A stretch of 64,000 nucleotides of DNA, taken from NCBI GenBank assembly GCA_021432635.1, contig MU270025.1, forward strand, positions 703,244 to 767,243. Direction: 5' to 3'. Below, piece after piece: positions 19,879 through 51,795 of this stretch (within the stretch, counting starts at the first letter, position 1; each line of letters opens with the position of its first letter). The notes below the pieces were generated by a model. That model was given only the letters and a program-made list of their open reading frames with translations, was not told the origin of the DNA and ran no database searches. The stretch is from Thozetella sp. PMI_491 (Eukaryota; Ascomycota; Sordariomycetes; Chaetosphaeriales; Chaetosphaeriaceae). The position numbers and the translations under genes are program-made.

Positions 19879-21544
19879 GACGCGAGGAATCGTCGGAACA
19901 AGGCCTGTGAACAATCCAGGACGCAGGCTGTGGGCCTCGCGAGGAAAAGAGAATTCAAGTACCCCCGACCACTAGTCCAAAGCCGAGAGGTGGTCCTAGC
20001 CCCTGCATATTGTTAGAGACCAGTTTTGACATGGGTATGCCAAAAGGGGTGAAAGATAGCGCCGAGCCGGGGGCCTACTAGGCCAGCCGGATTCTCCGAT
20101 GGTATAGGGCTGCAGGAAAGCTGCAATAACCTGCGCCTCTCTGTGCCCCACGGATATTCTCACATCAGCTGCTATTGGATGTCGGCCCATATATGATACA
20201 TATTAAAAGACCCTCAATCCAAGGACCCACGGCATTTACTTTCAGTTCTGGGGCATACGAGGGATATTCTCATGGACCACCCAGGATGCCTTGTTTTACC
20301 ACTAGTCGACTCAAACCCGTGCTCATTGGGCGTCATGAGGTGCCCCTCCGTTTTCACTCCGAGTTCCTGGCTTTGACCCCCCCTGAGCTTTTAATTCTCC
20401 TCGCCACACATTGACTTTCACGTGGCGTTCGTATATCAGAGGTGTCTTAGCGGCGCAGGTGGACCGGGATAGAGGTTGGCAGCTCTTTTGCATAATTTCG
20501 CATCCTCCGATCGCCAATCCCAAACAGCGATCTCATAGCGGGCGTTTTCGGATTGGCGGACACATTAAATATCGAAGGGCGGGCCGAAAACCACGCGGTC
20601 GAGCATCCACGGCGCCATGCATCAACGCCACCAAGGAACCTCGCCGCATCCTTGGCCTCACACAAGCCTCGGCCTCAGAACCGGCTTATCTTCGAGTGCC
20701 GCCCCCTCGTAGAGATTGGGCATTTAGAAGTGAGTCAGATCCGGCCTCTAAGGCGGCCACGTTAAATAGCCGCTCCATGTTTCCGCGATGGATCCGTTGG
20801 TAGAGATCAAGCCTTGTGAGGGAAAAATAATGTACCATGCGTGAAAGGCGATGCGCTAGATTTCCAGATTGTCCCTATAGCCTCAGGTGGTATCTTTCAC
20901 GCCCGCAGCTCCTAGTAGTAGACGGGCGCCGAAGGACCCCAATGAAGTACAGTGCTTGGGAACTACCTACCTACTCGTGCGGATGACGTTGCGTAACTTT
21001 GAGTAACGTGCCGGCTTCAGGTGGACTAGGGAATATATTCGAAGAAACCCGTAGCCATCTTTCAAGAGTTGGTAACGGAAACTACCTACCTCGCTCCACT
21101 CTTGTTCGGTCATTTCATCCAGTGGAGAAGTTAATCGATCAATGGGGGTTGCACGTGCTAAAGCAAGCCAGACCAGCCAGTAGCAGGGCTAAGAGAAGGA
21201 TTAAATAGTGAGGACTCGATATCGCTAACGAAGTTTCGGCGAGGAGATGCATGCTCTCTAGGAGAGCAGCAAGTCGGAGCGTGTGAGTTACTTTGATACC
21301 TTGAGAATCATATGCCAGGCCTACATTATTCACAAGGCGCAACATTATGGAGGATTAAATCCTATTTAATTCTTTCTTCATTCCTCCACTCATCGTTATC
21401 ACTGGCTTCCATATCATTTGCCTCTAACTTCGACTGAAATTACCCCCAAACCTTAAACATGATCTAGCCATAGACTAACAAACTCTGCACAACTAGGAAC
21501 CCATGCACAATTTATGATAAAATATCGTGGCAAGTTGAACCCCC

Positions 21545-28756: not shown

Positions 28757-29665
28757 TCACTTACCTAGCGCTTCCTTCACGACCGTGTCTAGATCCTCAT
28801 TCTGCAGGCCCAGGAGTTCCATGGCAAAATCCTCCTTCTCCTCCCAGTTCCCCTCAATCACCCCAAGCGCGAAGACCAGGTCCTCGATTGAGTCCCGGTT
28901 CCCGGCATCGGCTAGAGCCTTGTGCTTTTTGACAAATTCGTCGATGTCGACGTAGTCCGCCGAGTATTTCTCCCCGGTAATCCGCTCCAGAGACTCCAGC
29001 ACGTCCAGTTGCGAGACGCAGAAGCTTTGGATCATCAGCACGCGGTCCCTGGTTTCATCGAGCTTCTTGAAGATCTGCACGACGCCCTTGCTGATCTGCC
29101 CCAGCGTCGCGTTAGAGCTCTTCGCTTTGCCATCGCCGAGAATCTCAGCCCGCTTCTCGTCCGGGTAGAAGTGCAGAAACCCGTTGGTCAGGCCCCAGTC
29201 AAAGAAGTGACCGTTGACCAAGCTGGTCCACGAGAAGGCTCCGCCGCTCGCTGCCGCCAGTTCCTGCAGCCTCTCCCGCACCTTCACCTTGTTATCGAAC
29301 AGCTTCACCAGCTGCTGCGCGTAAAGACTGCGCGAGTCAACGCTGCCGTAGTCGGCCGGGATGAAGCGGCGCACACCAGCAGCGGCGGCGGCTTCGGCGA
29401 AGCGGATGTGCTGTGAGACATCGCGTAGCGGCCAGCACGCAATGGCAGCATCGTGGCCCTTTAGCGCTTCCGTAAGCTCTTCCGTAGTCCAGGCATCTGA
29501 GACCTCGACCAACTTTACTGAAGGAGGTGCCTCCGGTTGCGACTGGGATGACGCCCGCTTGATAACGGTGACGTTGAAGCTACCGTCGGCGAGGAGTGTT
29601 TTCAGCAGCACAGCACCCAGGTTGCCGTTGGCCCCAGCAAGGGCGACGTTCTTGATCTCTGACAT
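28757..29665 (-). CDS. NmrA-like / isoflavone-reductase-like NAD(P)-binding protein
   Basis: Single exon as read, 302 residues from the ATG at 29665. The N-terminal NAD(P)-binding loop is GANGNLG (residues 11-17). It continues with HDAAIACWPL, RRFIPADYGSVD and ERITGEKYSADYVD, the pattern of NmrA/PCBER-type atypical short-chain dehydrogenases in fungi. In this family some members are redox enzymes and others cofactor sensors for nitrogen control; the sequence does not decide. The frame is open upstream of 29665, but the Rossmann fold begins right after this ATG. A perfect donor (G|GTAAGT, near 28764) sits four codons before the stop, so the true C-terminus may lie in a further exon. Confidence 0.85.
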   Translation of the reverse strand: MSEIKNVALAGANGNLGAVLLKTLLADGSFNVTVIKRASSQSQPEAPPSVKLVEVSDAWTTEELTEALKGHDAAIACWPLRDVSQHIRFAEAAAAAGVRRFIPADYGSVDSRSLYAQQLVKLFDNKVKVRERLQELAAASGGAFSWTSLVNGHFFDWGLTNGFLHFYPDEKRAEILGDGKAKSSNATLGQISKGVVQIFKKLDETRDRVLMIQSFCVSQLDVLESLERITGEKYSADYVDIDEFVKKHKALADAGNRDSIEDLVFALGVIEGNWEEKEDFAMELLGLQNEDLDTVVKEALGK

Positions 29666-30518
29666 GGTGGAGTTTGGAGAAGCTGAGAGGGTCGTAGAGG
29701 ATGAACGAGCGTTATTGATGGTCAGAAGCGGGATGCTCGTTGAGTAATCCGACGCTGAGGTGGAGGCTCCGGAAACGGAAGGCAAATTCACGACGGGGGT
29801 ATACGACGGCAGTCACGCAAGATGCCAGACTAGTTTCTGGGTCACGTCAGCTCCAACGAAACACTTCTGAAATTGAAGCATTACCTACTATATCGGTATC
29901 TGGATCAGGTATGCGTGCCGAGTGAGGTGGGTTAGAGTCTATCTTTGATGGGAGGGGTGCTTCGATCGTAAGTAACCCCCCGGTCGACGACCTTGAAGAC
30001 CCACTCTGCACCCTAGTGTCATTTCCTTGGCAAGGAACTGGGGACCCACTGCCAAATTCAATACTCCTGAACTCTCCCGGTGAGTTCTCTCGATAAGGCT
30101 TTTCTAGTAGGAGAAGTGGATGAGCAAACATGCAGGGCCCAGGGATGAGTGTGCTATATAGGTACGTGCACTGGCAGATGATTCCGGTATGCGTGGCGGT
30201 GGCTTCTGCCGAATCTGAAGAGCACCTGGCTTGGTTCCGCTAATCTTCCTACCAAGCATTCATCTGAACCAGCCGTGCATTGCGCAAGACATGATTACAT
30301 AGATTTGATTGACAGGCTCGATTGTATCCAGGGGAGGCCATGGAAAAATATTAAACAGACACCTGTGTCTCCCGATGAACCAGGTTGGCTATAGCCATAT
30401 ACGCCGAATAGGGCCACAGGCTTGCCCTGACATAGAAGCCATAGTTATCTATTTCCAGGGCAATCGTATTGATCTCAGCTCAATTTCTTACTGTGATTAT
30501 AGCCATCTATCGGTTGCA
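29666..30518. other. Intergenic, no gene recognised
   Basis: Promoter of the NmrA-like gene and 3' region of the fusion gene. Confidence 0.6.
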
Positions 30519-32779
30519 TTATACAATTACGGGTGCCTCTTTATCTTGGTTTCCCGCCATCAGCGCCTCCTCCGCGACCGCTGCAATGTCAAACACCTTC
30601 GCATCATAGCCGCTCCCGCCCAGAATCGTGATACCAAATGGCAATGTGGTGCCTTCAAGATTTTGATATACGCCAGCGGGAATGTTCAGGCCGCACATGT
30701 CTACGACGTTCGCATAGTGGGTGAATGTGCCCAGCTTGGAGTTCAAGGCGATCGGATCCGCCTCCATGTCTTGTACCGTCGGATGCTGCGTCGTGGTCGG
30801 CACCACAAGGACATCTATGCCGCCTCGAAGCGTGTCGAATGTCTGCTGTGCCTTGCGGGTGAGCTGGATCTGCAGTGCTTGGTCGCAAAACACTTTATGT
30901 GCTGTCGGCTGTGAGGCCAGCGCCCGCCCAAACAGAGCCTTGATGGTCGGGTGGAGCTCATCGAGCTTCGTGGTGAGGAAGTCCAGTCCGATGCAAGCTA
31001 TGCGTTCGTGAAGCAGGGCGCCTTCGTAGAGCAGATCACCTGCGACCTCGAACACACTGTAGTCGATTTCGACAAGCCGGCCACCTTGCGAGCGAAGCGC
31101 TTGCACAGCTTTGGAGAACAGTTCTCGGTACGTGGGCGTGCAGACCTCGAGCGCCGACTCAGGGGGGACGGCAAATGTGAAACCCCCGAGACGGGGCCCA
31201 CGGAAATCTGTCTTCCACGTGGGCAGGACGTGCGGCAACTTGGAAAAAGCATCATCAGGATCATGGCGAGCGATGGTTCGCCATACTTTACGGGCGTCCG
31301 CTACGGATGGGGCGACGACGGTGATGGTGTCAAGGGTCCGGCAGGCCGGCACGAGCCCCCGCGCGGACACCGTCCCTTTTGTCGGCTTGAACCCGACGAT
31401 CCCGTTGAAAGCCGCCGGCACTCGCCCGCTCCCGGCCGTATCCGTGGCCAGGCCGAAGGACACCAAGTTCGCGCCGACAGAGACGGCCGAGCCGCTGGAA
31501 GAGCCTCCGGAGATGTGCTTCTCACTGAAGACACTGTGTGGGACTCCATAAGGAGACCGACACCCGGACAAGCCGGTAGCAAGCTGATCGAGGTTGACTT
31601 TTCCGACGAAGATGCCTCCAGCGTCAAGCACATGCTGCACCGCAAGTGCGTTTGCCTCTGGTGTAAACGCGTATTGGGGGCACGCGGCCGTGGTGGGGAT
31701 GCCGGACACGTCGATGGTGTCTTTTACTGAGAATGGAATGCCGTAGAGTGGCGGCAACGGCTTACCTGCATACTTGGACGCGAGGGTTGCGGCTGCTTCG
31801 AGACACTTCTCGCGGCTCTCGAGATGGATCCATACTGCAGGATCAATGGCCTGATATCTCTCGATCTTGTCTAAGACAAGGTTGACGATATCTGTGGGAG
31901 TCGTGATGCCCTTCTTATACCGGGACAGGAGCTCGTCGATGGGGGGCAAGACGTCATTAGAGAGAGTGGGAGGTGTGGATGGTGGCGTGAGCTCCGTTAG
32001 AGCCGCGGTGGTGGCATTGAAGAAGTCTGGGCTCGTTCCGACGAAGCCAAAAAGCCCGTCCTGTCCGCAGATGGTGTCCAGCGCAGTGGTGACCTGCTGG
32101 GCGTCGAAGCCCTGCGTACAGTCGTCCAGTACGCAGCACTGGTAGCCCCGGTCGTTGCATTCTCGTAGTGTTGTCGTCACGCAGCATCTAGTTCCCTCCG
32201 TCAGTGTCCTATAGCTCTTCTATATGAGCGATTGAATCGCATATGAACTTACTCTGTGGTAACGCCGGCAAATAGGAGATGCGTGACCCCCCGCGCGAGG
32301 AGTACACGGTGAATATCGGTCCCCCAGAAGCTCCCCTTTCCTGGCTTGTCGATGACGATCTCGTCGGGCCATGGCGTGAGCTCGTCGACAATGTCGTGTC
32401 CGTATTCCCCACGGACTAGTAACCGACCCATGGGGCCTTGATCGCCGATGCCCATGGTATGGTGTCCGTGAGGTGCTGATATCTGTCGTAGCCGCTTGGA
32501 TGCAGGTAGGTCGGCCAAGTCCGGCTGGTGGCCCTCGCGGGTGTGGATAACATGGCCGCCGGTGGAGCGGAAGACGTCGAGCACCCGGCGGACAACTGGC
32601 ACGATGGCGCGAGCCTTGGCAAACACCTCGGGGTCGCCGCACTGGATGGAGCCGAAGCCGCCCGGGTCAACAAAGTCGCGCTGGATGTCGATGATAATCA
32701 GGGCGGTGGTAGACAACGGGAACTCGAAGGCATACGGCCTGGCGTTAGGTAGGGACAGCATGAGGCCGTCGCGGGCCAT
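30519..32779 (-). CDS. Fusion of isochorismatase-like cysteine hydrolase (biuret-hydrolase type) and allophanate-hydrolase-type amidase
   Basis: Two exons, 32253..32779 and 30519..32187. The 65-nt intron (GTAAGT to ACTAG) restores GVTTECCVTTT. 731 residues. Residues ~20-230 are an isochorismatase-fold hydrolase with Asp31 (IIIDIQRDF), Lys145 (VIDKPGKGSF) and Cys177/Cys178. Residues ~255-725 are an amidase-signature enzyme: Lys331 (FSVKDT), cis-Ser405 (ISGGSSSGSA) and Ser429 (DTAGSGR). LNSKLGTFT and MCGLNIPAG are typical of allophanate hydrolases; the extra C-terminal domain of bacterial AtzF/DUR1,2-type enzymes is absent. In bacteria, biuret hydrolase makes allophanate, which allophanate hydrolase degrades to ammonia and CO2, so the fusion would carry out both steps (inference). 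Other ureido substrates, such as ureidoacrylate or carbamoyl compounds, remain possible. It is divergent from an NCS1 permease gene. Confidence 0.9.
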
Positions 32780-33280
32780 TGCGGCGGTGGATGGCCGGTG
32801 TTTACTTTGCTGTGTCTCACGTACTCAGGGGCAAGTGTGGGGGTTGTTGATGTAAACCCCTTCCAATTCAAATAATTGGAGGCTTGCAGCAGAGCAATAC
32901 GACTACACGTCTGAGATTCGACGGGCCCGTGAAATGAACAAAGGAGGGTAGAAGAAGCTTCGCCCCTTCGATGCACAAGACTCGCTTCGGTTGCGCTAGC
33001 CTGTTGGTTGATACAGCAGGAAAATTTTCATTCAGAGGCTGGCGGCTTGGTCACATCTCACAGCCCGGATGGGAGGCGCCACCTTGTGTTTATCTGTTCC
33101 CCTTTGGTTGCGGGGTATCTATCACCAAGGCGAGCTTATCAGCCCCGGCGGCCCGCCGGGGACTGCGGCGGCGTGGGGTGAAGGGATGAAGGGGTCCCCG
33201 CCTTCCCCGGCCGAACCAATACCCACCCGCCCCGGGGCGATCGAGAGATCCTGCATCCAGAGATCTCTTGTGCGATATTT

Positions 33281-33332
33281 GATATCCCACCTCGATATCC
33301 CACCTCGATATTCCAGCTCGACATCCCAGCTC
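33281..33332. repeat. Four tandem copies of a 13-nt unit
   Basis: GATATCCCACCTC occurs twice exactly (33281-33293 and 33294-33306), then GATATTCCAGCTC and GACATCCCAGCTC. It lies in the shared promoter and could be a cluster of protein-binding sites or simple slippage. Confidence 0.88.
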
Positions 33333-33832
33333 GCTTGGCCCTTGTCGACATGCAAGAGGGTGGGCGGCTCCCTCTCGCGGATAATGAATCATTCCTATGA
33401 CTAGTCCTCCTCAGCAACGAGTAGCAGCCCAATCATGGCTCTTTCCTGCCTGCATGCGACGCGGGCTTGTGGGAGCGACCGTTGGGCAAGCCGTCAGCTC
33501 TGGAACCTCTCCGCCGGGGTTCCTTCGAGAACCTTGCGGGTCTTGAATGAGGAAAGCTATCGCAAGATGATTGATTTGGCTATTCACTTGTCTAATCCAG
33601 TCGTTCGGTAACTTCTGCAAGGTCGCGCCGACGCCTGTGGTATCACAACCTAGCTCTCGCTTGCACGTCTTTATCGCACCGACCAATGGGGAATTGTCCA
33701 GCCTGCATGAGAGTGCCGGGGCCACATTGCCGAGTCCAGTCACTGTTTGGGTCGCCCTGCAGCTTATCTCGACCTCGAGCTAGTTGTCACACGGCTGAAG
33801 GAGGCCGGCGGCGATATCGAAAGGGGTGTGGT

Positions 33833-33843
33833 CTTATCTTATC
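33833..33843. promoter_or_regulatory. Tandem GATA-factor sites (AreA/NIT2 type)
   Basis: CTTATCTTATC, which on the minus strand reads as two adjacent GATAAG-type sites. Fungal nitrogen regulators of the AreA/NIT2 family bind HGATAR and favour closely paired sites. Position: about 340 nt before the permease ATG and 1.05 kb before the hydrolase ATG. Confidence 0.55.
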
Positions 33844-34048
33844 GACACCAACCTTGATCCTTGCCAATGAGAGCGACTACCACGCCGTCGGGCTGGGACT
33901 CTGATGTTGCTCAGTTTGCCCCGCCGGCAGAGAGACCCTTGTGCATAGGCGGCGGGCTGGCGCTATCGCCCCGGCGCGCGGTGCGGATGGAGAGCTGAGG
34001 CTGGGGAGCGTTACACTATCAACAGCACCTAGTGGTGAGGTCTGACTG

Positions 34049-34056
34049 GTATATAG
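34049..34056 (+). promoter_or_regulatory. TATA-like box of the NCS1 permease gene
   Basis: GTATATAG about 130 nt upstream of the ATG at 34186, suitable spacing for a fungal core promoter. Confidence 0.4.
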
Positions 34057-34185
34057 ATCAAGTCCACACCCGGCTCCTTACGACTTCGCATGCTGCAACG
34101 AGCCCTTCTCAAGACAACAGAGCAAATTTGAAGTCGATACAAAATCCCAAGTGACATATTCCATCCGGCCAAGACATCGATCGAC

Positions 34186-36190
34186 ATGTCGAGCCTCCGA
34201 GCCAGGGCGGCTGCCATCAAGGCTGACCTGAGGACCAAGGCCAAGCCGTCGGGCTGGGTCCTACCCCAGCAGCCTTCATCCTTCGCCGATGAGGGAACCT
34301 GGTAAGCCGAGTAGCTGCCCGAGACATCTATACCATTCTTACAAGGTGCTGATTCGTCTCGAAACAGGACCAACATCGACTGCGACGTGACTCCCCTCGA
34401 CCGCCGCACGTGGACTGCTTGGACCATGTTCGGCTATTGGTTCAGCGATGCCCTCAATGCTCAATCGTGGATGGCACCGGCCTCCATCATCGCGCTTGGT
34501 CTCACGTGGTACGACACAGCACCTGCTGCTCATGTTTGATGACGTGCTTAAGAGGCCGAGCTTCTAAGATGAAAACACTAACACGCACTTTTCCTCGCAG
34601 GCGTGAAGCTGTCGTCTGCATCATATTCGGTAGTCTCGTCTGCACGGTTCCGCTAGTGCTCAACGGGATGATTGGTGCACGCCTCCATATCCCTTTCCCG
34701 ATAGCCATGAGGGCCTCCTTTGGGTGGTACTTCTCGCGCTTTGCCATCGTCACCCGGGCCATCACTGCCCTCTTCTGGCATGCCATCCAAACCTACACAG
34801 GCTCGACGGCTATGACCCAGATGATCCGAGCTATCTGGCCATCGTACCTAGATATCCCAAATACCATCCCCGAGAGCATCGGTATTACGACACAGACCAT
34901 GATCAGCCATCTGGTCTTCTGGACCATTCAGTTCCCCATTCTCCTCATCCCGCCGCACAAACTCAAGTGGTTCTTTGTCGCCAAGTGTGGTAAGTGCTCG
35001 CAATTCCCGACACTGCTGTTTGCTGATCGAGACTAATCGAACAAGTTCTTGTGCTTACCTGCTCCGTGGCGGTCGTCATTACCATGACTTCCAAAGCAGG
35101 AGGTACCGGCGCTATCTGGGATCTACCTTACGGAGTCGAAGGCTCCGCTAGATCTTGGCTCATTCTTTCATCGCTCTCGAGCATCACTGGTGGATGGTGA
35201 GCCCCTTGTCGTTACCCTATGCCGTCCAAGCGTATATTCTAACTCTGCTTCCAGGGCGACGATGGCAACAAATATTCCGGATTTCACGAGATATCTCAAG
35301 ACTGATAAGGGTGTCTACTGGCAGGTGGCTTTCCTTCCCGGTATCCAGCTCGTGCTGGGGATTTTCGGCATTATATGCTGCTCCTGCGCCAAAGTTGTGT
35401 ACGGAGAATACATCTGGGATCCGCTAGTCCTCGCCGCTCAGTGGGACGGCCCCGCCGGACGATGTGGTGCCTTCTTTGTCGGACTGACCTGGGTCGTAGC
35501 CCAGATCGGCACCAACCTCTCAGCCAACGTCATCTCGGCCGCCAACGATATCACGTCTCTGTTCCCGAAATATATCAACATTAAGCGAGGCGTCATTCTC
35601 TCCACCATCACCGCTGCGTGGATCATGCAGCCGTGGAAGATCATCCACTCGGCGGCGTCTTTGCTGGCTTTCATGGCTGGTCTCGGTATCTTTCTCGCCC
35701 CGATCGCTGCGATCCTCGGCGCCGACTACTGGGTGGTTCATAAGCAACGCCTTGATGTCCCCAGCTTGTACAAGTCTCACGGCCGGTATCGATACAACAA
35801 GTATGGAACAAACTGGCGAGCTGCTATCGCATTCCTGGTTAGCGTCGTGCCCAGTCTACCCGGAATGTGAGACTTCCTGTCCCTTCTGTTCCCTCCGATG
35901 ATGATGACGTTGCGACTGATCCTGATCTTGATAGGGCTGCCACCGTGAATCCTGACATAGCGCCCAGTATCGGGGACGCCAACAAGCTCTATTTCATGTT
36001 TTATTTCTGGGGCTACACGTCCGCATTCGTGATATACAGTGCTCTGTGCTACTTCTTCCCAGCCCAGGAGACCATGATTGCAGCTACTGTCTTTGGTGAG
36101 CTGGATATCGACTCCAGCGACTCGGTCGCTAAAGTGGATTCCGAGGACGTTGAGAAGAAGGCTGTCGAGGTGGAACAGTCGGCCCTCTAA
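34186..36190 (+). CDS. NCS1-family permease (purine/cytosine/uracil/allantoin type)
   Basis: Six exons: 34186..34301, 34368..34508, 34601..34989, 35046..35196, 35255..35866 and 35935..36190. All borders are GT-AG and the frame is kept throughout. 554 residues. A proton- or sodium-coupled plasma-membrane importer of nucleobases or ureides with about twelve helices. Family motifs are FGYWFSDALNAQSW in helix 1, MRASFGWY, FFVAKCVLVLTCSVAVVIT, the substrate-site region ATNIPDFTRY, then SANVISAANDI, ADYWVVHKQ and VNPDI before the last helices. The acidic C-terminal tail is Asp/Glu/Lys-rich, as in transporters controlled by ubiquitylation. Being divergent from the biuret/allophanate-type fusion hydrolase, it is the likely importer for that enzyme's substrate or precursor (inference). 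Confidence 0.93.
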
Positions 36191-42721: not shown

Positions 42722-45028
42722 CTAAGCCCCGTTGCTGCCGCAGCACGCCTCTCCAACTTTCAGGCCGTCCATCGCCTCGTTCAGACCGACGCTGCAGTTC
42801 ACGGCCTGCACGCTCGGCGCGCAGTCGAGAGCCGGGTTGCGGTCGAAGAAGTTGACGGGCCGGAGCATGACGCGCAGCGTCTCGACGGGCATGACGGGGA
42901 AGTCTTCGATGCGGGGCACGTGGTTGATGCCGAACTGAAGCCACAGCACGGGGTCGCCACCGCGCAGGCTGTCCTGGCGGTTGGCCCAGTTGCGGACGCC
43001 CGTGCCGCCGCGGCTCTGGTTGGTGTACAGGCCGCCGGAGTACAGCTCGCCCTCGGCGTAGCGCGTGACGTAGACGCTGTGGTCGGCAAACTCGGCGCGC
43101 TTGTAGTGGAAGCTGTCGCTATCGGCGAGGATGGGCTGCATGGGCGGCAGCATGACCTTGTAACCGACGACGGCGCCGTTGACGGCGTTGCGCACCGCCG
43201 GGTTGGTAATCTTGAAGGTGCGGTTACGGTTCACGTCGAGGTCGTAGCCGCCCGACGTGGCGACCTCGGTCCGTTGGACCGTGTAACCGGTGCCGTGCGG
43301 GTTCTGTTTGGGGTCCCGCGGGAGCGGGACGGCCTCGTCGTACACGATGGCGTTGCCGTGGCCGCCGATCATGGGGTCCACGCGCAGCGAGAAGAAGTGC
43401 TGGTGGAAGCCGGCAAGCACACCCGGGTGCACGACGGTGCCGTAGGGGTGCGGCGTGGTGGTCAGGTCGAGGTCGAGCGGCTGCGTCGACAGGATACCGG
43501 TGGCGCGCGCCTCATAGGTCATGTCTCCGGCCGTGTTGAAGACGAACTGCAGGATATACTCGTAGTTGCTGACAGTCAGGATGGTCTGTAGCACCAGCTC
43601 GCGGCTACGAACGACCACGGGGCGGTTGGTGCGGTAGTTTGTGTGCTTCCAGCCGATGCCGGCGTCCTGCTCGTGCACGCAGATGACGTTGGGCATCTCG
43701 ACGGCCTCGCCGCGGCTGCCCGAAAGCACGCCGCTGATGTAGTAGATGCTGCCGAGGCAGTCGCACCCCAGCTGCAGGTTGTTGGCCATGATGCCGGCGC
43801 CGGCGTCGCCGAGGTCGAAGGCGGCCTTGCGGTGGAACGGGTGGCGCGGGTCCGAGTAGGGAATCGACATGTCCGACAGGCTGAGGCGGTAGAAGAGCGG
43901 CTTGTTGTCGTAGTGCACGTCGTAGAGCACCATGCCCTCGCGCTGGTTGAAGCCCACCTTGAAGTCCCACTTCTGCCACCGAATCAGCCGCCCCATCTCC
44001 GAGAACGGCTCGACGGTGAAGGATGCGCCTTCGGGCTGCACCACGCGGAGCGGCTTGAGGTCGGTCCGGAGCGTCTGCGCCTCCGGGATGTACTCATTCG
44101 GCGGCCGGGGCTGCCACGGCTCCAGCGGCTTGACCGTCTCATCCAGGCCCGTGGGCACGATATCGATGCGGATCAGCTCCATCGTGGCCGGGTCGATAAC
44201 GGGGGAGATGGGAAGAGGGAACGAGTAGTGGCAGCTGTCCGCCTCGCCCGAGTTGTTAGGGTCTCGCATGTAGAGGAAGCACTGCATCACGCGCTTGTCG
44301 TCATAGAACTTGTCGTCCTTCACGCCGTCAGAGCCTAGCCGTCGGTCAGCAGCCGCGCTCACTCGAGGCGTGGGGGAGCACGGAGAAGGATTCACCATAG
44401 ATCCAGGGGTCCGCGACCAACACGGTCCCCTCCGGAAGCTTCAGCTTGGCGATCTCTGCCTGGACGTCTGGGTGCTCGAGCAAGGCCTTTTCGACGGCGA
44501 TGATCTCCTCGCCGTCACCGTTGGCGTGCATGAACGGCCCCAGCTTCACGTTGCTCTCAACCTTGCTCTGCGTGAGGTTGACGACAGCCTCATGCAGGTT
44601 GTGCTGTGATCTCATCAGCAAGGAAGAACCGGGCACTGCCAGAGAGGACGGCAAGGGGCGAAAGCCCGGAAGGTACCACGCACCGTGCCACGGAGGTAAT
44701 AGACAACAAAGGCACGCCGGTCAATATCAGTTGGGAGCTGGCCCCCGCGCTCGGCAGCCAGGTAGGGTATCAGCTCGGCCTTGGCCGGCTCCAGGAGGGT
44801 GATAGCCTTAAACTGGAACTCGGTGCCTGCTGGCCAGGAGCCATGGATAAGTTCCGCGCCGCGGGTGATCTCCTGGGCGCTCAGAGGCCCCAGCGGATGA
44901 GCGCGGTAGGCCGGGGGCCCCGTGGCGCCGTTCGCGGCCTTCGCAGCGACTCCGGCATCGTGGGCCGTGTCCCCCTCAGCCGGGACGGGGGGCTGCGAAT
45001 CGACACGGATGTCGTTGTTGGCGGTCAT
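42722..45028 (-). CDS. Copper amine oxidase
   Basis: Three exons: 44684..45028, 44396..44603 and 42722..44334, with introns of 80 and 61 nt. 721 residues. It oxidises primary amines to aldehydes with release of ammonia and hydrogen peroxide, using copper and a self-made topaquinone. The topaquinone Tyr lies in SNYEY (about residue 442), the catalytic-base Asp in AAFDLGD (about 358), and the first two copper His in FHQHFF; the distal His lies in the C-terminal domain (INHVPRIEDFP region). N-terminal HPLGPLSAQEI is the usual start of the D2 domain. No signal peptide, so it is cytosolic or peroxisomal; the C-terminus GSNGA is not a classic peroxisomal signal. It fits use of amines as nitrogen source. 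Confidence 0.94.
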
Positions 45029-48974: not shown

Positions 48975-50292
48975 ATGGGTAGGGAATCGGTTACCTAACA
49001 CAGGCGGGATACCCATACGGGTGGGGCATGAGCTGGAATTCGATTCCGGGAGGGCCCGGCCTAGAAATGGATCTTCTGCGTATGTGCGAGAGCGATCCTC
49101 CATGTTCTCGGGAGTTTAGCTGCTATATTATCATATCGGTCACAATCCACCCTGGTTCACGTATCGATCGTGGGGCGTGGCTCTGCCCTCTGCCAGCGCG
49201 AAACTTGTAACACTTGAATCTTGGGTGTTATGATTTCAGTAATACTAGGGTTCGTACTCGTAATTAACCACCAGGGTTGAAAGGTTGCGTTCTCTTCCGA
49301 GAAGGTTCCGGCTTCTAAACTCCCCGTTCCGTCCGCTCCGGCTCCACCTGTTATCCTATGGCACAGTCTTGTAGGCTCGGTTTCGCGTTCTCCAGTACCC
49401 AGTTCCTAAAAGTAGCTCATCCCAGCGTCATGTCACAGCAACGGAAGGCCCATCCAAAGTCACGTGTTCGAGATGGGCAAATATTACGACGAGAGCGGCA
49501 GGTCATGATCGCTTTGCCACAGCTGTTTCCACTCGGCGGCGAGAATCCGCTCCCGAAACGTACTTGTGGTGAGTGGTTCTAGATCGATGGTAAGGGACTG
49601 TGCGCAAACTGAAAGGCTGCTCGGCGGAATATCAGATGGAGCCGCGAGGTTGGCGCGCCGAGACAGCGTCAGTGTCGGCACGATGCGACGATGTTTAGCA
49701 TCGGCGGTACTGTTTCCTGCCAACCAGCACCGCCTCGCTGCCAAATCGGAAAATTGACCAGAAGTGCAGGGCTGGTTGGGCCGAACCGGCAAGGGGGCCC
49801 TGCGCGGCGGCCGGCGATGGCGTTTAGGGCAGCACTGACGCCGCTCGGAGCCCGTCAAGAGAAGCTTCCAGCCAACAGCAGGTCGCCTCGTTTCGGAAGA
49901 CCACCCAAGCGCCGACGCCGCTCATCAGACGGTCAGCCTCGCATCAAATACTGCTCCTTATTTTGGTTCTCTGAACTACAGACCAAACATCAATGACGCC
50001 GAGGTCGCGCAGGATCCCCTACGCCCAGAACTGCCTCGCCGAAGTCCGCAGGCTGCGCCGGCGTGGCGGCTTGGTCGAGAGTCTCGATGTTCATACTAAT
50101 ACGGATATCCCGCCGAGTGGCGGCGCATGGGCACTTGATCTTCCGGACTCTCTTTCCCGCTCCAATAGTTGTATTGTACATATATTTAAGGATTGAATGG
50201 TTGGAGCGATTGGCTGGACCATCATTGTTATTGCTTGCTCTTAATAGACGACATTTCTTTTCCCGGCAGAGCCGCATACAACCTCGCGCACC
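48975..50292. other. Intergenic, no gene recognised
   Basis: 3' region of Con-6 and promoter of the repeat protein. No recognised coding region. Confidence 0.55.
50181..50190 (+). promoter_or_regulatory. TATA-like box of the KGSA repeat protein gene
   Basis: TATATTTAAG about 105 nt before the ATG at 50293. Confidence 0.45.
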
Positions 50293-51795
50293 ATGCATCT
50301 CACTCTGTCCTGGCAGACAGCCCTCACGGCCGCCCTTCTGCTGGGCGATGCCCTTGCGCAGCATACCGGAGGCGAGCCCTCCCGCCGAGCCCTCGCGAGA
50401 CGAGACGAAGAGAACATCCCAGCCGTGGCTCACGCCGCCTACGCCCGCCAGGCCAAGGGAAGCGCTGTTGGAAGTGCTGCGCCAGCAACGACCGCGAAGG
50501 CTAAGGGAAGCGCTGCGGTAGTAGCCGCACGTCAAGCGAAGGGAAGCGCCACCGCCAAGGGAAGCGCGGCGCCGGCCACCACCGCGAAGGGTGCTAAGGG
50601 CAGCGCAGCGGTCCTCGCTGCCCGCCAGGCAAAGGGAAGCGCGACAGCAAAGGGCAGCGCCGCGCCCGCAACGACCGCGAAGGCCAAGGGAAGCGCTGCT
50701 CCGGCGACTACTGCGAAGGGTGCTAAGGGCAGCGCGGCGGTCCTCGCTGCCCGCCAGGCCAAGGGAAGCGCGACTGCTAAGGGAAGCGCTGCACCGGCCA
50801 CCACCGCGAAGGGTGCTAAGGGCAGCGCGGCTGTCCTCGCTGCACGACAGGCGAAGGGGAGCGCCACCGCCAAGGGAAGCGCGGCACCGGCCACCACCGG
50901 GAAGGCTAAGGGTAGCGCTGCGGTAGTTGCTGCCCGTCAGGCGAAGGGCAGCGCGACCGCCAAGGGAAGTGCTGCACCGGCCACCACCGCGAAGGGTGCT
51001 AAGGGCAGCGCGGCCGTGCTTGCTGCCCGCCAGGCGAAGGGCAGTGCCACCGCCAAGGGAAGCGCTGCACCTGCGACGACCGCAAAGGCCAAGGGTAGCG
51101 CTGCGGTAGTTGCTGCCCGCCAGGCCAAGGGCAGCAGCGCTACCGCTAAGGGAAGCGCCGCGCCCGCGACGACGGCTAAGGCCGCCAAGGGCAGCGCGGC
51201 TGTGCTCGCTGCACGACAGGCGAAGGGAAGTGCGACAGCCAAGGGAAGCGCCGCGCCTGCAACAACTGCGAAAGCCAAGGGGAGCGCTGCGGTCGTCGCG
51301 GCTCGTCAGGCCAAAGGTAGCAGCGCAACTGCGAAGGGAAGCGCGGCTCCGGCGACTACCGCGAAGGCCGCCAAGGGAAGCGCCGCGCCCGCAACGACCG
51401 CGAAGGCCAAGGGCAGTGCTGCGGTCGTCGCGGCTCGCCAAGCTAAGGGGAGTGCCGCTACCGCCAAGGGAAGCGCTGCTCCGGCGACTACCGCCAAGGC
51501 CGGCAAGGGCAGCGCGGCGTTGGCCGCAGGCCAGGCCGAGGCCACCGCTGCCGAGGCCGCTTACCGCCGAAACGCAGCCGCCGTCGCCGCCCATGTCGCC
51601 GCCCGGGCTCCCGTGCCGGCGCTCGAGGACCCCACGACGCTCCTCAAGGTGGCCCGGTCTCCTCGCCCTAGCACGGAAGCCGGTAAGTCCTCATCCCCGT
51701 TTCTGCATTCTCGGAAACGGATAGCTGACAATGCCGCAGAGAAGCGAGTCATCGCGCAGCTAATCGAGCGCGCCAACAACAACCATGAGGCTTGA
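50293..51795 (+). CDS. Secreted Ala/Lys-rich tandem-repeat protein (KGSA/PATT repeats)
   Basis: Two exons, 50293..51682 and 51740..51795. The 57-nt intron (GTAAGT to CCGCAG) is a multiple of three without a stop. 481 residues spliced. Signal peptide (MHLTLSWQTALTAALLLG, cleavage near ALAQ), then a short pro-region with dibasic pairs (PSRRALARRDEEN). Next come ~360 residues of tandem repeats of 30-31 residues, built from AKGSAAPATTAK, AKGSAAVLAARQ or AKGSAAVVAARQ, and AKGSAT. APATT occurs 13 times. The C-terminal ~90 residues are unique and partly helical, with a charged end (EKRVIAQLIERAN). The repeat is strongly basic, Ala-rich and almost without aromatics, like a linker-histone tail but exported. 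No dibasic site lies within the repeat, so it does not look like a standard Kex2-processed repeat precursor. Function unknown. Confidence 0.82.
   Translation: MHLTLSWQTALTAALLLGDALAQHTGGEPSRRALARRDEENIPAVAHAAYARQAKGSAVGSAAPATTAKAKGSAAVVAARQAKGSATAKGSAAPATTAKGAKGSAAVLAARQAKGSATAKGSAAPATTAKAKGSAAPATTAKGAKGSAAVLAARQAKGSATAKGSAAPATTAKGAKGSAAVLAARQAKGSATAKGSAAPATTGKAKGSAAVVAARQAKGSATAKGSAAPATTAKGAKGSAAVLAARQAKGSATAKGSAAPATTAKAKGSAAVVAARQAKGSSATAKGSAAPATTAKAAKGSAAVLAARQAKGSATAKGSAAPATTAKAKGSAAVVAARQAKGSSATAKGSAAPATTAKAAKGSAAPATTAKAKGSAAVVAARQAKGSAATAKGSAAPATTAKAGKGSAALAAGQAEATAAEAAYRRNAAAVAAHVAARAPVPALEDPTTLLKVARSPRPSTEAGKSSSPFLHSRKRIADNAAEKRVIAQLIERANNNHEA
50440..51510 (+). repeat. Protein-coding tandem repeat, 90-93-nt units
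   Basis: About a dozen 90- or 93-nt units in frame, alternating between VL and VV versions, with two places where a half-unit is repeated alone. Unit identity is high, so copy number probably varies between strains. Confidence 0.85.

What the first reader, a model, noticed from the sequence alone, without database searches (positions are those of the whole stretch)
30519..32779. Two-enzyme fusion that could convert biuret to ammonia in one polypeptide
The spliced gene joins an isochorismatase-like cysteine hydrolase with intact Asp/Lys/Cys to an allophanate-hydrolase-type amidase with intact Lys/Ser/Ser. In bacteria, biuret hydrolase feeds allophanate directly to allophanate hydrolase; here both steps would be physically linked, and the C-terminal domain of the bacterial amidase is missing. 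I do not know of a characterised fungal enzyme of this architecture.
Basis: partly seen in the sequence, partly recalled or inferred. Interest (0 to 1): 0.75.

Follow-up and report, generated by a model that had tools for sequence, protein, structure and literature searches.

The report
Fungal ureide hydrolase–allophanate hydrolase fusion
A fungal gene joins, in one protein, two enzymes that bacteria make as separate proteins: one that trims small urea-like compounds such as biuret or triuret, and one that turns the product, allophanate, into ammonia; it probably lets the fungus use these compounds as a nitrogen source.

Summary
A minus-strand gene (exons 32779-32253 and 32187-30519) encodes 731 aa: an isochorismatase-type cysteine hydrolase, a short Pro/Thr-rich linker and an allophanate-hydrolase amidase without its C-terminal domain. 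The fusion point lies inside one uninterrupted exon, so it is not a splicing artefact. The amidase half keeps its Lys and Ser residues and an allophanate-site Tyr/Arg pair; the hydrolase half keeps Asp31, Lys145, Cys178 and the five other residues shared by TrtA and BiuH that I checked.

The interpretation needs one change. The N half belongs to the biuret/triuret hydrolase group, far from RutB, but trees put it, as a deep long branch, on the triuret-hydrolase (TrtA) side rather than with BiuH; support is moderate. At six TrtA/BiuH-discriminating positions it fits neither consensus, so the substrate (biuret, triuret or both) cannot be read from sequence.

No prokaryotic fusion was found (0 of 80 best loci). 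A haloarchaeal plasmid carries BiuH and a C-domain-less AtzF in one frame split by one stop codon, near an NCS1 permease; the fungal gene also faces an NCS1 permease. Eight literature searches aimed at it listed no enzyme of this architecture. New variant of a known kind; activity untested.

The parts
32253..32779 (-). exon 1: residues 1-175 and two bases of codon 176 of the fusion; most of the cysteine hydrolase domain with Asp31, Phe36, Phe42, Gly48, Glu82, Lys145, Lys148, Ser150, Thr174
32188..32252 (-). intron, 65 nt, GT...AG with a CTGAC branch-type motif, phase 2; the codon for Glu176 spans the junction
   Evidence: no transcript data
30519..32187 (-). exon 2: end of the cysteine hydrolase domain (Cys178, Phe203, Gln218, Leu221), linker, whole amidase domain, stop codon
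32007..32749 (-). cysteine hydrolase half, residues about 11-236 (interrupted by the intron)
   Evidence: BiuH profile 11-233; TrtA 6xix 12-224, RhdBiuH 6xjm 8-236
31941..32006 (-). Pro/Thr-rich linker, residues about 237-258
   Evidence: sequence
30546..31940 (-). allophanate-hydrolase amidase half, residues 259-723; Lys331, Ser405/406, Ser429, Tyr563, Arg571; no C-terminal domain
34186..35870 (+). divergently transcribed NCS1 permease gene (several exons; 5' end inferred by eye from reading frames, 3' end from the last matching frame, further exons possible); allantoin-permease side of NCS1
32780..34185 (.). intergenic region between the two divergent genes; 10 HGATAR motifs in 32780-34400 against a mean of 3.3 per equal stretch of the window (weak; composition not controlled)

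Best explanation
A bifunctional nitrogen-scavenging hydrolase of a filamentous fungus. The N-terminal cysteine hydrolase (Asp31-Lys145-Cys178, with Gln218 probably donated by the partner subunit as in TrtA and BiuH) removes the terminal amide nitrogen of biuret, and perhaps first of triuret, giving allophanate plus ammonia. The C-terminal amidase (Lys331, Ser405 or Ser406, Ser429, with Tyr563/Arg571 holding the carboxylate) deaminates allophanate to dicarboxyammonia, which can fall apart to ammonia and CO2 without the missing C-terminal domain. The divergent NCS1 permease probably imports the ureide. Shown: architecture, residues, family placement of both halves, neighbour. Inferred: substrate, order of reactions, import. 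The N half looks like an early branch of the triuret-hydrolase side with a second-shell arrangement of its own, so a dual biuret/triuret activity is my preferred reading.
For: Both halves match the right families. All 8 residues shared by TrtA and BiuH that I checked are kept (Asp31, Phe36, Glu82, Lys145, Lys148, Thr174, Cys178, Gln218). The AH Tyr/Arg pair is kept (33 of 36 aligned rows have it, query included). Bacterial operons have the same order, hydrolase before atzF. A haloarchaeal plasmid has BiuH and a C-domain-less AtzF in one frame with one TAG between, and an NCS1 permease nearby. A survey reports biuH contigs that also carry codB, a cytosine permease (PMC12625717, passages). Of 34 genomes searched (chosen by me out of 80 loci), 10 have a below-cut-off, TrtA-type hydrolase and an AH but no BiuH over its cut-off (tallied by hand), so the pairing without BiuH is not unique to the fungus.
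Against: Characterised TrtA hardly touches biuret (four orders of magnitude less; PMC7948467, abstract); if the N half behaves like TrtA its product is carboxybiuret, then biuret, and the fused AH would wait for another enzyme. Positions 48, 203 and 221 fit neither consensus. In yeast-type AH the C-terminal domain catalyses a sequential step (PMC5770610, passage), so its loss could cost efficiency. Some TrtA-side enzymes sit in clusters, and genomes, without AH, so the clade may use other ureides. The NCS1 permeases of the fungus and of the archaeon are not close relatives, so the shared context may be coincidence. No expression or enzyme data.
Confidence: 0.6

Rival explanations
1. The N half is a strict triuret hydrolase. 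The fusion then yields carboxybiuret and biuret from triuret, a separate biuret hydrolase elsewhere in the genome makes allophanate, and the C half finishes the job; the fusion reflects operon order, not direct channelling.
For: Best PDB match is TrtA; TrtA side in trees, and a clade with canonical TrtA is not rejected (p 0.346); Phe42 and Glu176 are the TrtA letters; in plasmid operons L083 and L084 the TrtA-side gene is the one next to, or one gene away from, atzF.
Against: In L081 and L082 the hydrolase before atzF is BiuH-type instead. Asn41, Tyr187 and Ile205 of TrtA are Gly, Phe and Leu here; N41Y and Y187T left under 10% activity in TrtA, though those are other substitutions (PMC7948467). 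No second isochorismatase in the 64-kb window; the rest of the genome is not held. Fusing steps one and three of a three-step path is odd.
Confidence: 0.22
2. The C half mainly serves urea breakdown, as allophanate hydrolase for a separate urea carboxylase, and the fused hydrolase acts on an unrelated ureide.
For: Stand-alone amidases distinct from the DUR1,2 amidase occur in Dothideomycetes, several together with an unlinked urea carboxylase (PMC3073912, abstract, section 6 and passages).
Against: Fusion to a biuret/triuret-type hydrolase is best explained by allophanate from biuret. No urea carboxylase among the window frames scanned (14 proteins or frames only).
Confidence: 0.08
3. The N half acts on another planar ureide (ureidoacrylate, guanylurea, an oxalurate precursor) and the resemblance to biuret/triuret hydrolases is only of fold and triad.
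For: The query's combination of active-site letters occurs in no other of 134 rows; TrtA-side relatives occur in allFGHK-type clusters without AH.
Against: RutB is far (at most 27% identity and 82 bits, against 203 bits for TrtA); the one GuuH compared lacks the Gln202 and Lys132 equivalents that the query keeps; the fused AH uses allophanate.
Confidence: 0.1

Closest known systems
Triuret hydrolase TrtA (Herbaspirillum sp. BH-1, PDB 6XIX/6XJE/6XJ4)
   Same: 49-51% identity; same triad, Phe29, Glu72, Lys132, Thr158, Gln202, plus Phe35 and Glu160; same side of the tree
   Different: Asn41, Tyr187, Ile205 replaced by Gly, Phe, Leu; Ala134 by Ser; TrtA is a stand-alone 24-kDa protein
Biuret hydrolase BiuH (Rhizobium, PDB 6AZO; Rhodococcus RhdBiuH, 6XJM)
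   Same: 46-47% identity; same triad and substrate-binding Lys, Phe, Gln
   Different: the two Tyr, Asp, Thr and Val of BiuH are Phe, Gly, Glu, Phe, Leu; below the BiuH family cut-off; stand-alone enzyme
Allophanate hydrolase AtzF / GbAH (PDB 4CP8, 4GYR)
   Same: matches over the whole amidase domain (E 5.6e-96 and 1.8e-91), catalytic residues and the Tyr/Arg pair
   Different: fused behind a cysteine hydrolase; no C-terminal domain
Fungal urea amidolyase DUR1,2 (KlUA, PDB 5I8I)
   Same: also a fungal fusion that makes and consumes allophanate in one chain
   Different: partner is urea carboxylase, not a cysteine hydrolase; its amidase scores lower (270 against 325 bits for AtzF) and lies elsewhere in the AH tree, on unstarred branches
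Natronorubrum daqingense plasmid NZ_CP019329.1 biuH-atzF pair (L081)
   Same: hydrolase then C-domain-less atzF in the same frame, NCS1 permease nearby
   Different: two genes split by a TAG stop; hydrolase is BiuH-type; permease from another NCS1 branch

Membership tests
Isochorismatase-like cysteine hydrolase superfamily | Pfam PF00857 over gathering score and Asp/Lys/Cys triad | tested here: met
   126.3 bits against 27; D31, K145, C178
Biuret hydrolase BiuH | NCBIfam BiuH equivalog cut-off (370 bits) | tested here: not met
   227.3 bits; in 34 genomes the below-cut-off matches score 245-301 bits apart from a partial one (220) and a distant one (145)
Biuret hydrolase BiuH | BiuH consensus Tyr, Tyr, Asp, Thr, Val at TrtA positions 35, 41, 160, 187, 205 | tested here: not met
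   F, G, E, F, L
Biuret hydrolase BiuH | groups with BiuH in a tree | tested here: inconclusive
   outside the BiuH clade in three trees; AU p 0.0235 (a constraint that also shuts L081 out) and 0.0445 against BiuH+query, but 0.288 when L081 is included
Triuret hydrolase TrtA | TrtA consensus Phe35, Asn41, Glu160, Tyr187, Ile205 | tested here: not met
   2 of 5 (Phe, Glu) kept
Triuret hydrolase TrtA | groups with TrtA in a tree | tested here: inconclusive
   TrtA side with 84/93, 100/99, 98/93, but deep and long; canonical TrtA+query not rejected (p 0.346), nor query as sister to the whole side (p 0.289)
BiuH or TrtA | hydrolysis of biuret or triuret | not testable with these tools
   needs an enzyme assay
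Allophanate hydrolase | amidase-signature Lys/cis-Ser/Ser and the allophanate-site Tyr/Arg (pair recalled as Tyr299/Arg307 of K. lactis AH; from no call) | tested here: met
   K331, S405/S406, S429, Y563, R571; which of 405/406 is the cis-Ser was not tested
Allophanate hydrolase | NCBIfam cut-offs (511.05 for TIGR02713, 487 for NF006043) | tested here: not met
   451.4 and 479.9 bits, with the C-terminal part of both profiles unmatched; of C-domain-less prokaryotic copies, Actinomadura also falls short (507.6) while Natronorubrum passes (576.7)
Allophanate hydrolase | C-terminal domain | tested here: not met
   also absent in L081/L085, L075/L091, L029/L108, L053, L034
RutB ureidoacrylate amidohydrolase | NCBIfam RutB cut-off 377.95 and tree | tested here: not met
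   102.6 bits; RutB used as outgroup, on a long branch
Guanylurea hydrolase GuuH | residues of GuuH (Glu at the Gln202 site, Tyr at the Lys132 site in the one copy compared) and tree | tested here: not met
   query has Gln and Lys; GuuH_MET branches outside BiuH and TrtA sides, with a long-branch warning; I took the pMET-2 cysteine hydrolase at 20653-21288 to be it from PMC9800807 passages
Urea amidolyase DUR1,2 | urea carboxylase domain in the same chain | tested here: not met
   only two Pfam domains

The most novel reading that the evidence does not exclude
A single fungal enzyme that mineralises triuret and biuret to ammonia. Its N-terminal domain comes from the triuret-hydrolase side but has biuret activity by a third arrangement of the second-shell residues, and hands allophanate to the fused amidase: a eukaryotic one-chain version of the bacterial trtA-biuH-atzF pathway.
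Probability: 0.35. Interest if true: 0.7.

Novelty: new variant of a known kind. Interest (0 to 1): 0.52.

Why it matters
Biuret and triuret are fertiliser impurities, and triuret is a product of urate oxidation (PMC7948467). TrtA's authors state that trtA occurs in some fungi (same paper, passage), but my searches listed no described fungal enzyme. A fusion of the two activities would identify a eukaryotic pathway, give a natural test of channelling of allophanate, and add a third natural solution to how this active site tells biuret from triuret.

Tried and rejected
Considered and rejected: splice artefact (fusion lies in one exon); RutB or unrelated isochorismatase; GuuH; fusion inherited ready-made from a prokaryote in the collections (0 of 80 loci with both in one frame; of 33 plasmid records with at least 80% cover, 25 were listed and only H7 was one piece, and it is split by a stop; the other 8 were not seen); an AH C-terminal domain or a second hydrolase elsewhere in the window (none at E 0.01). 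Pantoea plasmid L112 looked like the same trio (amidase, NCS1, hydrolase), but its amidase is not an allophanate hydrolase.

Led nowhere: the viral collection (no relative); the window's own genome (not held); the Robinson et al. paper on biuret hydrolases (not held). No fungal genome collection was available, so the spread among fungi, the other genes of this fungus and its name are unknown. The HGATAR count is only a hint. The 36-row AH alignment holds one gene twice (L027_3 and L086_1474). The AH tree left out three truncated or partial rows (L044_2258, L060_1, L070_2), and the query's place in it is weak (80/52). The archaeal row L081 was left out of the tree and the tests because of its long branch; with it in, the BiuH side is not rejected.

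Full report
WHAT IS THERE. The gene is on the minus strand: ATG at 32779, a 65-nt GT-AG intron at 32252-32188, stop at 30519; the spliced product has 731 residues. Pfam finds an isochorismatase domain (25-215) and an amidase domain (280-707), both far above the curated scores. The intron interrupts the hydrolase domain just before its catalytic cysteine. Everything from there on, including Cys178, Gln218, a linker (about residues 237-258) and the amidase, is one open frame, so the fusion cannot come from a wrong splice. Only the codon of Glu176 spans the junction, so that one diagnostic residue does depend on the splice model.

THE C HALF. The best solved relatives are the allophanate hydrolases AtzF (4cp8, E 5.6e-96), GbAH (4gyr), KlAH (4iss) and yeast-type urea amidolyase (5i8i, 270 bits); GatA and other amidases come far behind, 128 bits and less. 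In an alignment of 36 rows (query, three PDB references, 32 amidases from the loci held then, one gene twice), the query has the catalytic Lys and Ser residues and the Tyr/Arg pair that I recall from the literature as the allophanate carboxylate site (Tyr299/Arg307 of K. lactis AH; from no call). The pair is Tyr/Arg in 33 of 36 rows, Phe/Arg in two distant amidases (L093, L094) and unreadable in one truncated row (L044). The NCBIfam allophanate-hydrolase scores, 479.9 and 451.4 bits, fall short of the cut-offs 487 and 511.05, with the C-terminal part of both profiles unmatched. A missing C-terminal domain is not peculiar to the fungus: the rows from Natronorubrum, Actinomadura, a Propionibacteriaceae MAG, Pseudonocardia and Actinomycetospora also end soon after the amidase; the Actinomadura and Propionibacteriaceae genomes do hold C-domain-like matches beside another AH copy, so help in trans is possible there. 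The BiuH paper (PMC5806882, passages) says that the AH product, dicarboxyammonia, decomposes under physiological conditions, which would make the domain dispensable; against that, a paper on yeast urea amidolyase says that the N and C domains of AH catalyse sequential reactions (PMC5770610, passages). In the AH tree the query does not join the yeast enzyme, but none of the branches concerned is starred and the query's own place is weak.

THE N HALF. PDB matches are ordered TrtA 212 bits, RhdBiuH 195, BiuH 188, RutB 85. From the TrtA paper (PMC7948467: abstract, passages, the Results section and part 1 of 2 of the Discussion) I took the residues shared by TrtA and BiuH and the six positions at which their consensus differs. 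All 8 shared residues checked are kept (Asp31, Phe36, Glu82, Lys145, Lys148, Thr174, Cys178, Gln218). At the six positions (TrtA 35, 41, 134, 160, 187, 205) TrtA has F N A E Y I, BiuH has Y Y S D T V, and the query has F G S E F L: two TrtA letters, one BiuH letter (Ser) that also occurs in 10 TrtA-side rows, and three of neither consensus, of which Phe at 187 is shared with the Bacillota-type group. The query's full pattern occurs once among the 134 rows.

TREES. In a 140-row tree the query falls on the TrtA side (84 rows, 84/93; the bootstrap had not settled). With RutB as outgroup (63 rows) it is inside the TrtA-side clade (34 rows, 100/99) and outside the BiuH clade (24 rows). With GuuH and two more relatives added and the long archaeal row left out (65 rows) it is again on the TrtA side (36 rows, 98/93) and the BiuH clade is separate (24 rows, 96/97). 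Against this: its end branch is the longest in the trees and the third longest, and the program warns of long branches. AU tests reject BiuH+query only at p 0.0235 (a constraint that also shuts L081 out) and 0.0445; they do not reject BiuH+L081+query (p 0.288), canonical TrtA+query (p 0.346), or the query as sister to the whole TrtA side (p 0.289). I conclude: TrtA side more likely, an early lone lineage, not settled.

RELATIVES AND CONTEXT. In none of the 80 are hydrolase and AH in one frame; 23 of 80 have an AH-like match over 150 bits in the stretch held. Two plasmid operons, in Agrobacterium (L083) and Ideonella (L084), run ABC transporter genes, BiuH-type, ABC ATPase, TrtA-type, (cupin in L083), atzF (types); in Rhizobium plasmid L082 the hydrolase upstream of atzF is BiuH-type. 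In all of these the hydrolase comes before atzF, as in the fusion. In plasmids, 33 of 72,556 records have a place covering at least 80% of the fusion; of the 25 listed only Natronorubrum daqingense gives one piece. There a BiuH-type gene and a 459-aa atzF lie in the same frame with exactly one TAG between them, and a cytosine permease (NCS1) follows on the other strand. The fungal fusion faces an NCS1 permease too, which matches allantoin-permease models; the two permeases are not close. A survey of nitrifier genomes reports biuH contigs with codB (PMC12625717, passages).

TrtA-TYPE WITHOUT BiuH. I searched the genomes of 34 of the 80 loci, chosen by me mostly because the stretch showed no BiuH paralogue. 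12 of 34 have a BiuH over the cut-off and 21 of 34 an AH over the cut-off; by hand tally 10 of 34 have a below-cut-off (TrtA-type) hydrolase and an AH but no BiuH over the cut-off. Four of these loci (L029, L040, L072, L075) have the AH in the stretch held. Many are MAGs and may be incomplete. This makes a TrtA-lineage hydrolase paired with AH alone a natural arrangement, and hints that part of this side may use biuret. Against a simple rule: 13 of 34 have no AH at E 1e-120, and 11 of 80 stretches carry FdrA or DUF1116 (allFG-type) genes.

MECHANISM. The main reading is biuret (and possibly triuret) to allophanate in the N half, allophanate to ammonia in the C half. The argument for biuret is the partner: AH needs allophanate, which BiuH chemistry makes in one step, whereas strict TrtA chemistry does not. 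The argument against is that characterised TrtA is almost inactive on biuret. RhdBiuH, which hydrolyses both (1.7 and 0.3 U/mg; PMC7948467), shows that a dual enzyme is possible.

PRIOR ART. Ten paper searches were made; eight aimed at this protein or its pathway and two at side questions. None of the listings named a fungal isochorismatase-amidase fusion; the library holds open-licence papers only, two lists were cut (25 of 140, 10 of 18), and I opened only the papers cited. Strope et al. 2011 (PMC3073912: abstract, section 6 and passages) report stand-alone amidases in Dothideomycetes, distinct from the DUR1,2 amidase, without mention of a second domain in what I read, and the word isochorismatase does not occur in the held text; they might be this protein. 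TrtA's authors mention trtA in some fungi.

Noticed in passing
L110 2547-12648; L109 5001-10559; L001, L006, L018, L022, L023, L055, L056, L059: TrtA-side cysteine hydrolases sit beside whole or partial sets of PucR regulator, xanthine-type permease, AllH (DUF2877), FdrA, DUF1116 and carbamate kinase genes (allFGHK type), also on a conjugative E. coli plasmid (L109); the genomes of the eight L0xx loci have no AH at E 1e-120. In the Bacillota-type group Glu160 is His and Tyr187 is Phe. They may feed a phosphorolytic carbamoyl-phosphate branch.
   Followed up: partly
L081 5794-8037: Haloarchaeal plasmid: BiuH-type gene and C-domain-less atzF in the same frame separated by one TAG, a near-fusion; cytosine permease nearby.
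   Followed up: yes
window 32780-34400: Ten HGATAR motifs, all on the minus strand, in the divergent promoter region (1.3% of equal stretches of the window have as many); could be AreA-type nitrogen control, composition not controlled.
   Followed up: partly
window 42722-44440 (-): Copper amine oxidase gene (513.5 bits), another possible nitrogen-scavenging enzyme in the same window.
   Followed up: no
window 50248-51795 (+): Open frame made largely of AKGSAAPATTAK / AAVVAARQAKGSA repeats after a signal-peptide-like start (signal judged by eye).
   Followed up: no
window 28757-29812 (-): NmrA-like family protein, the next long frame downstream of the fusion gene.
   Followed up: no
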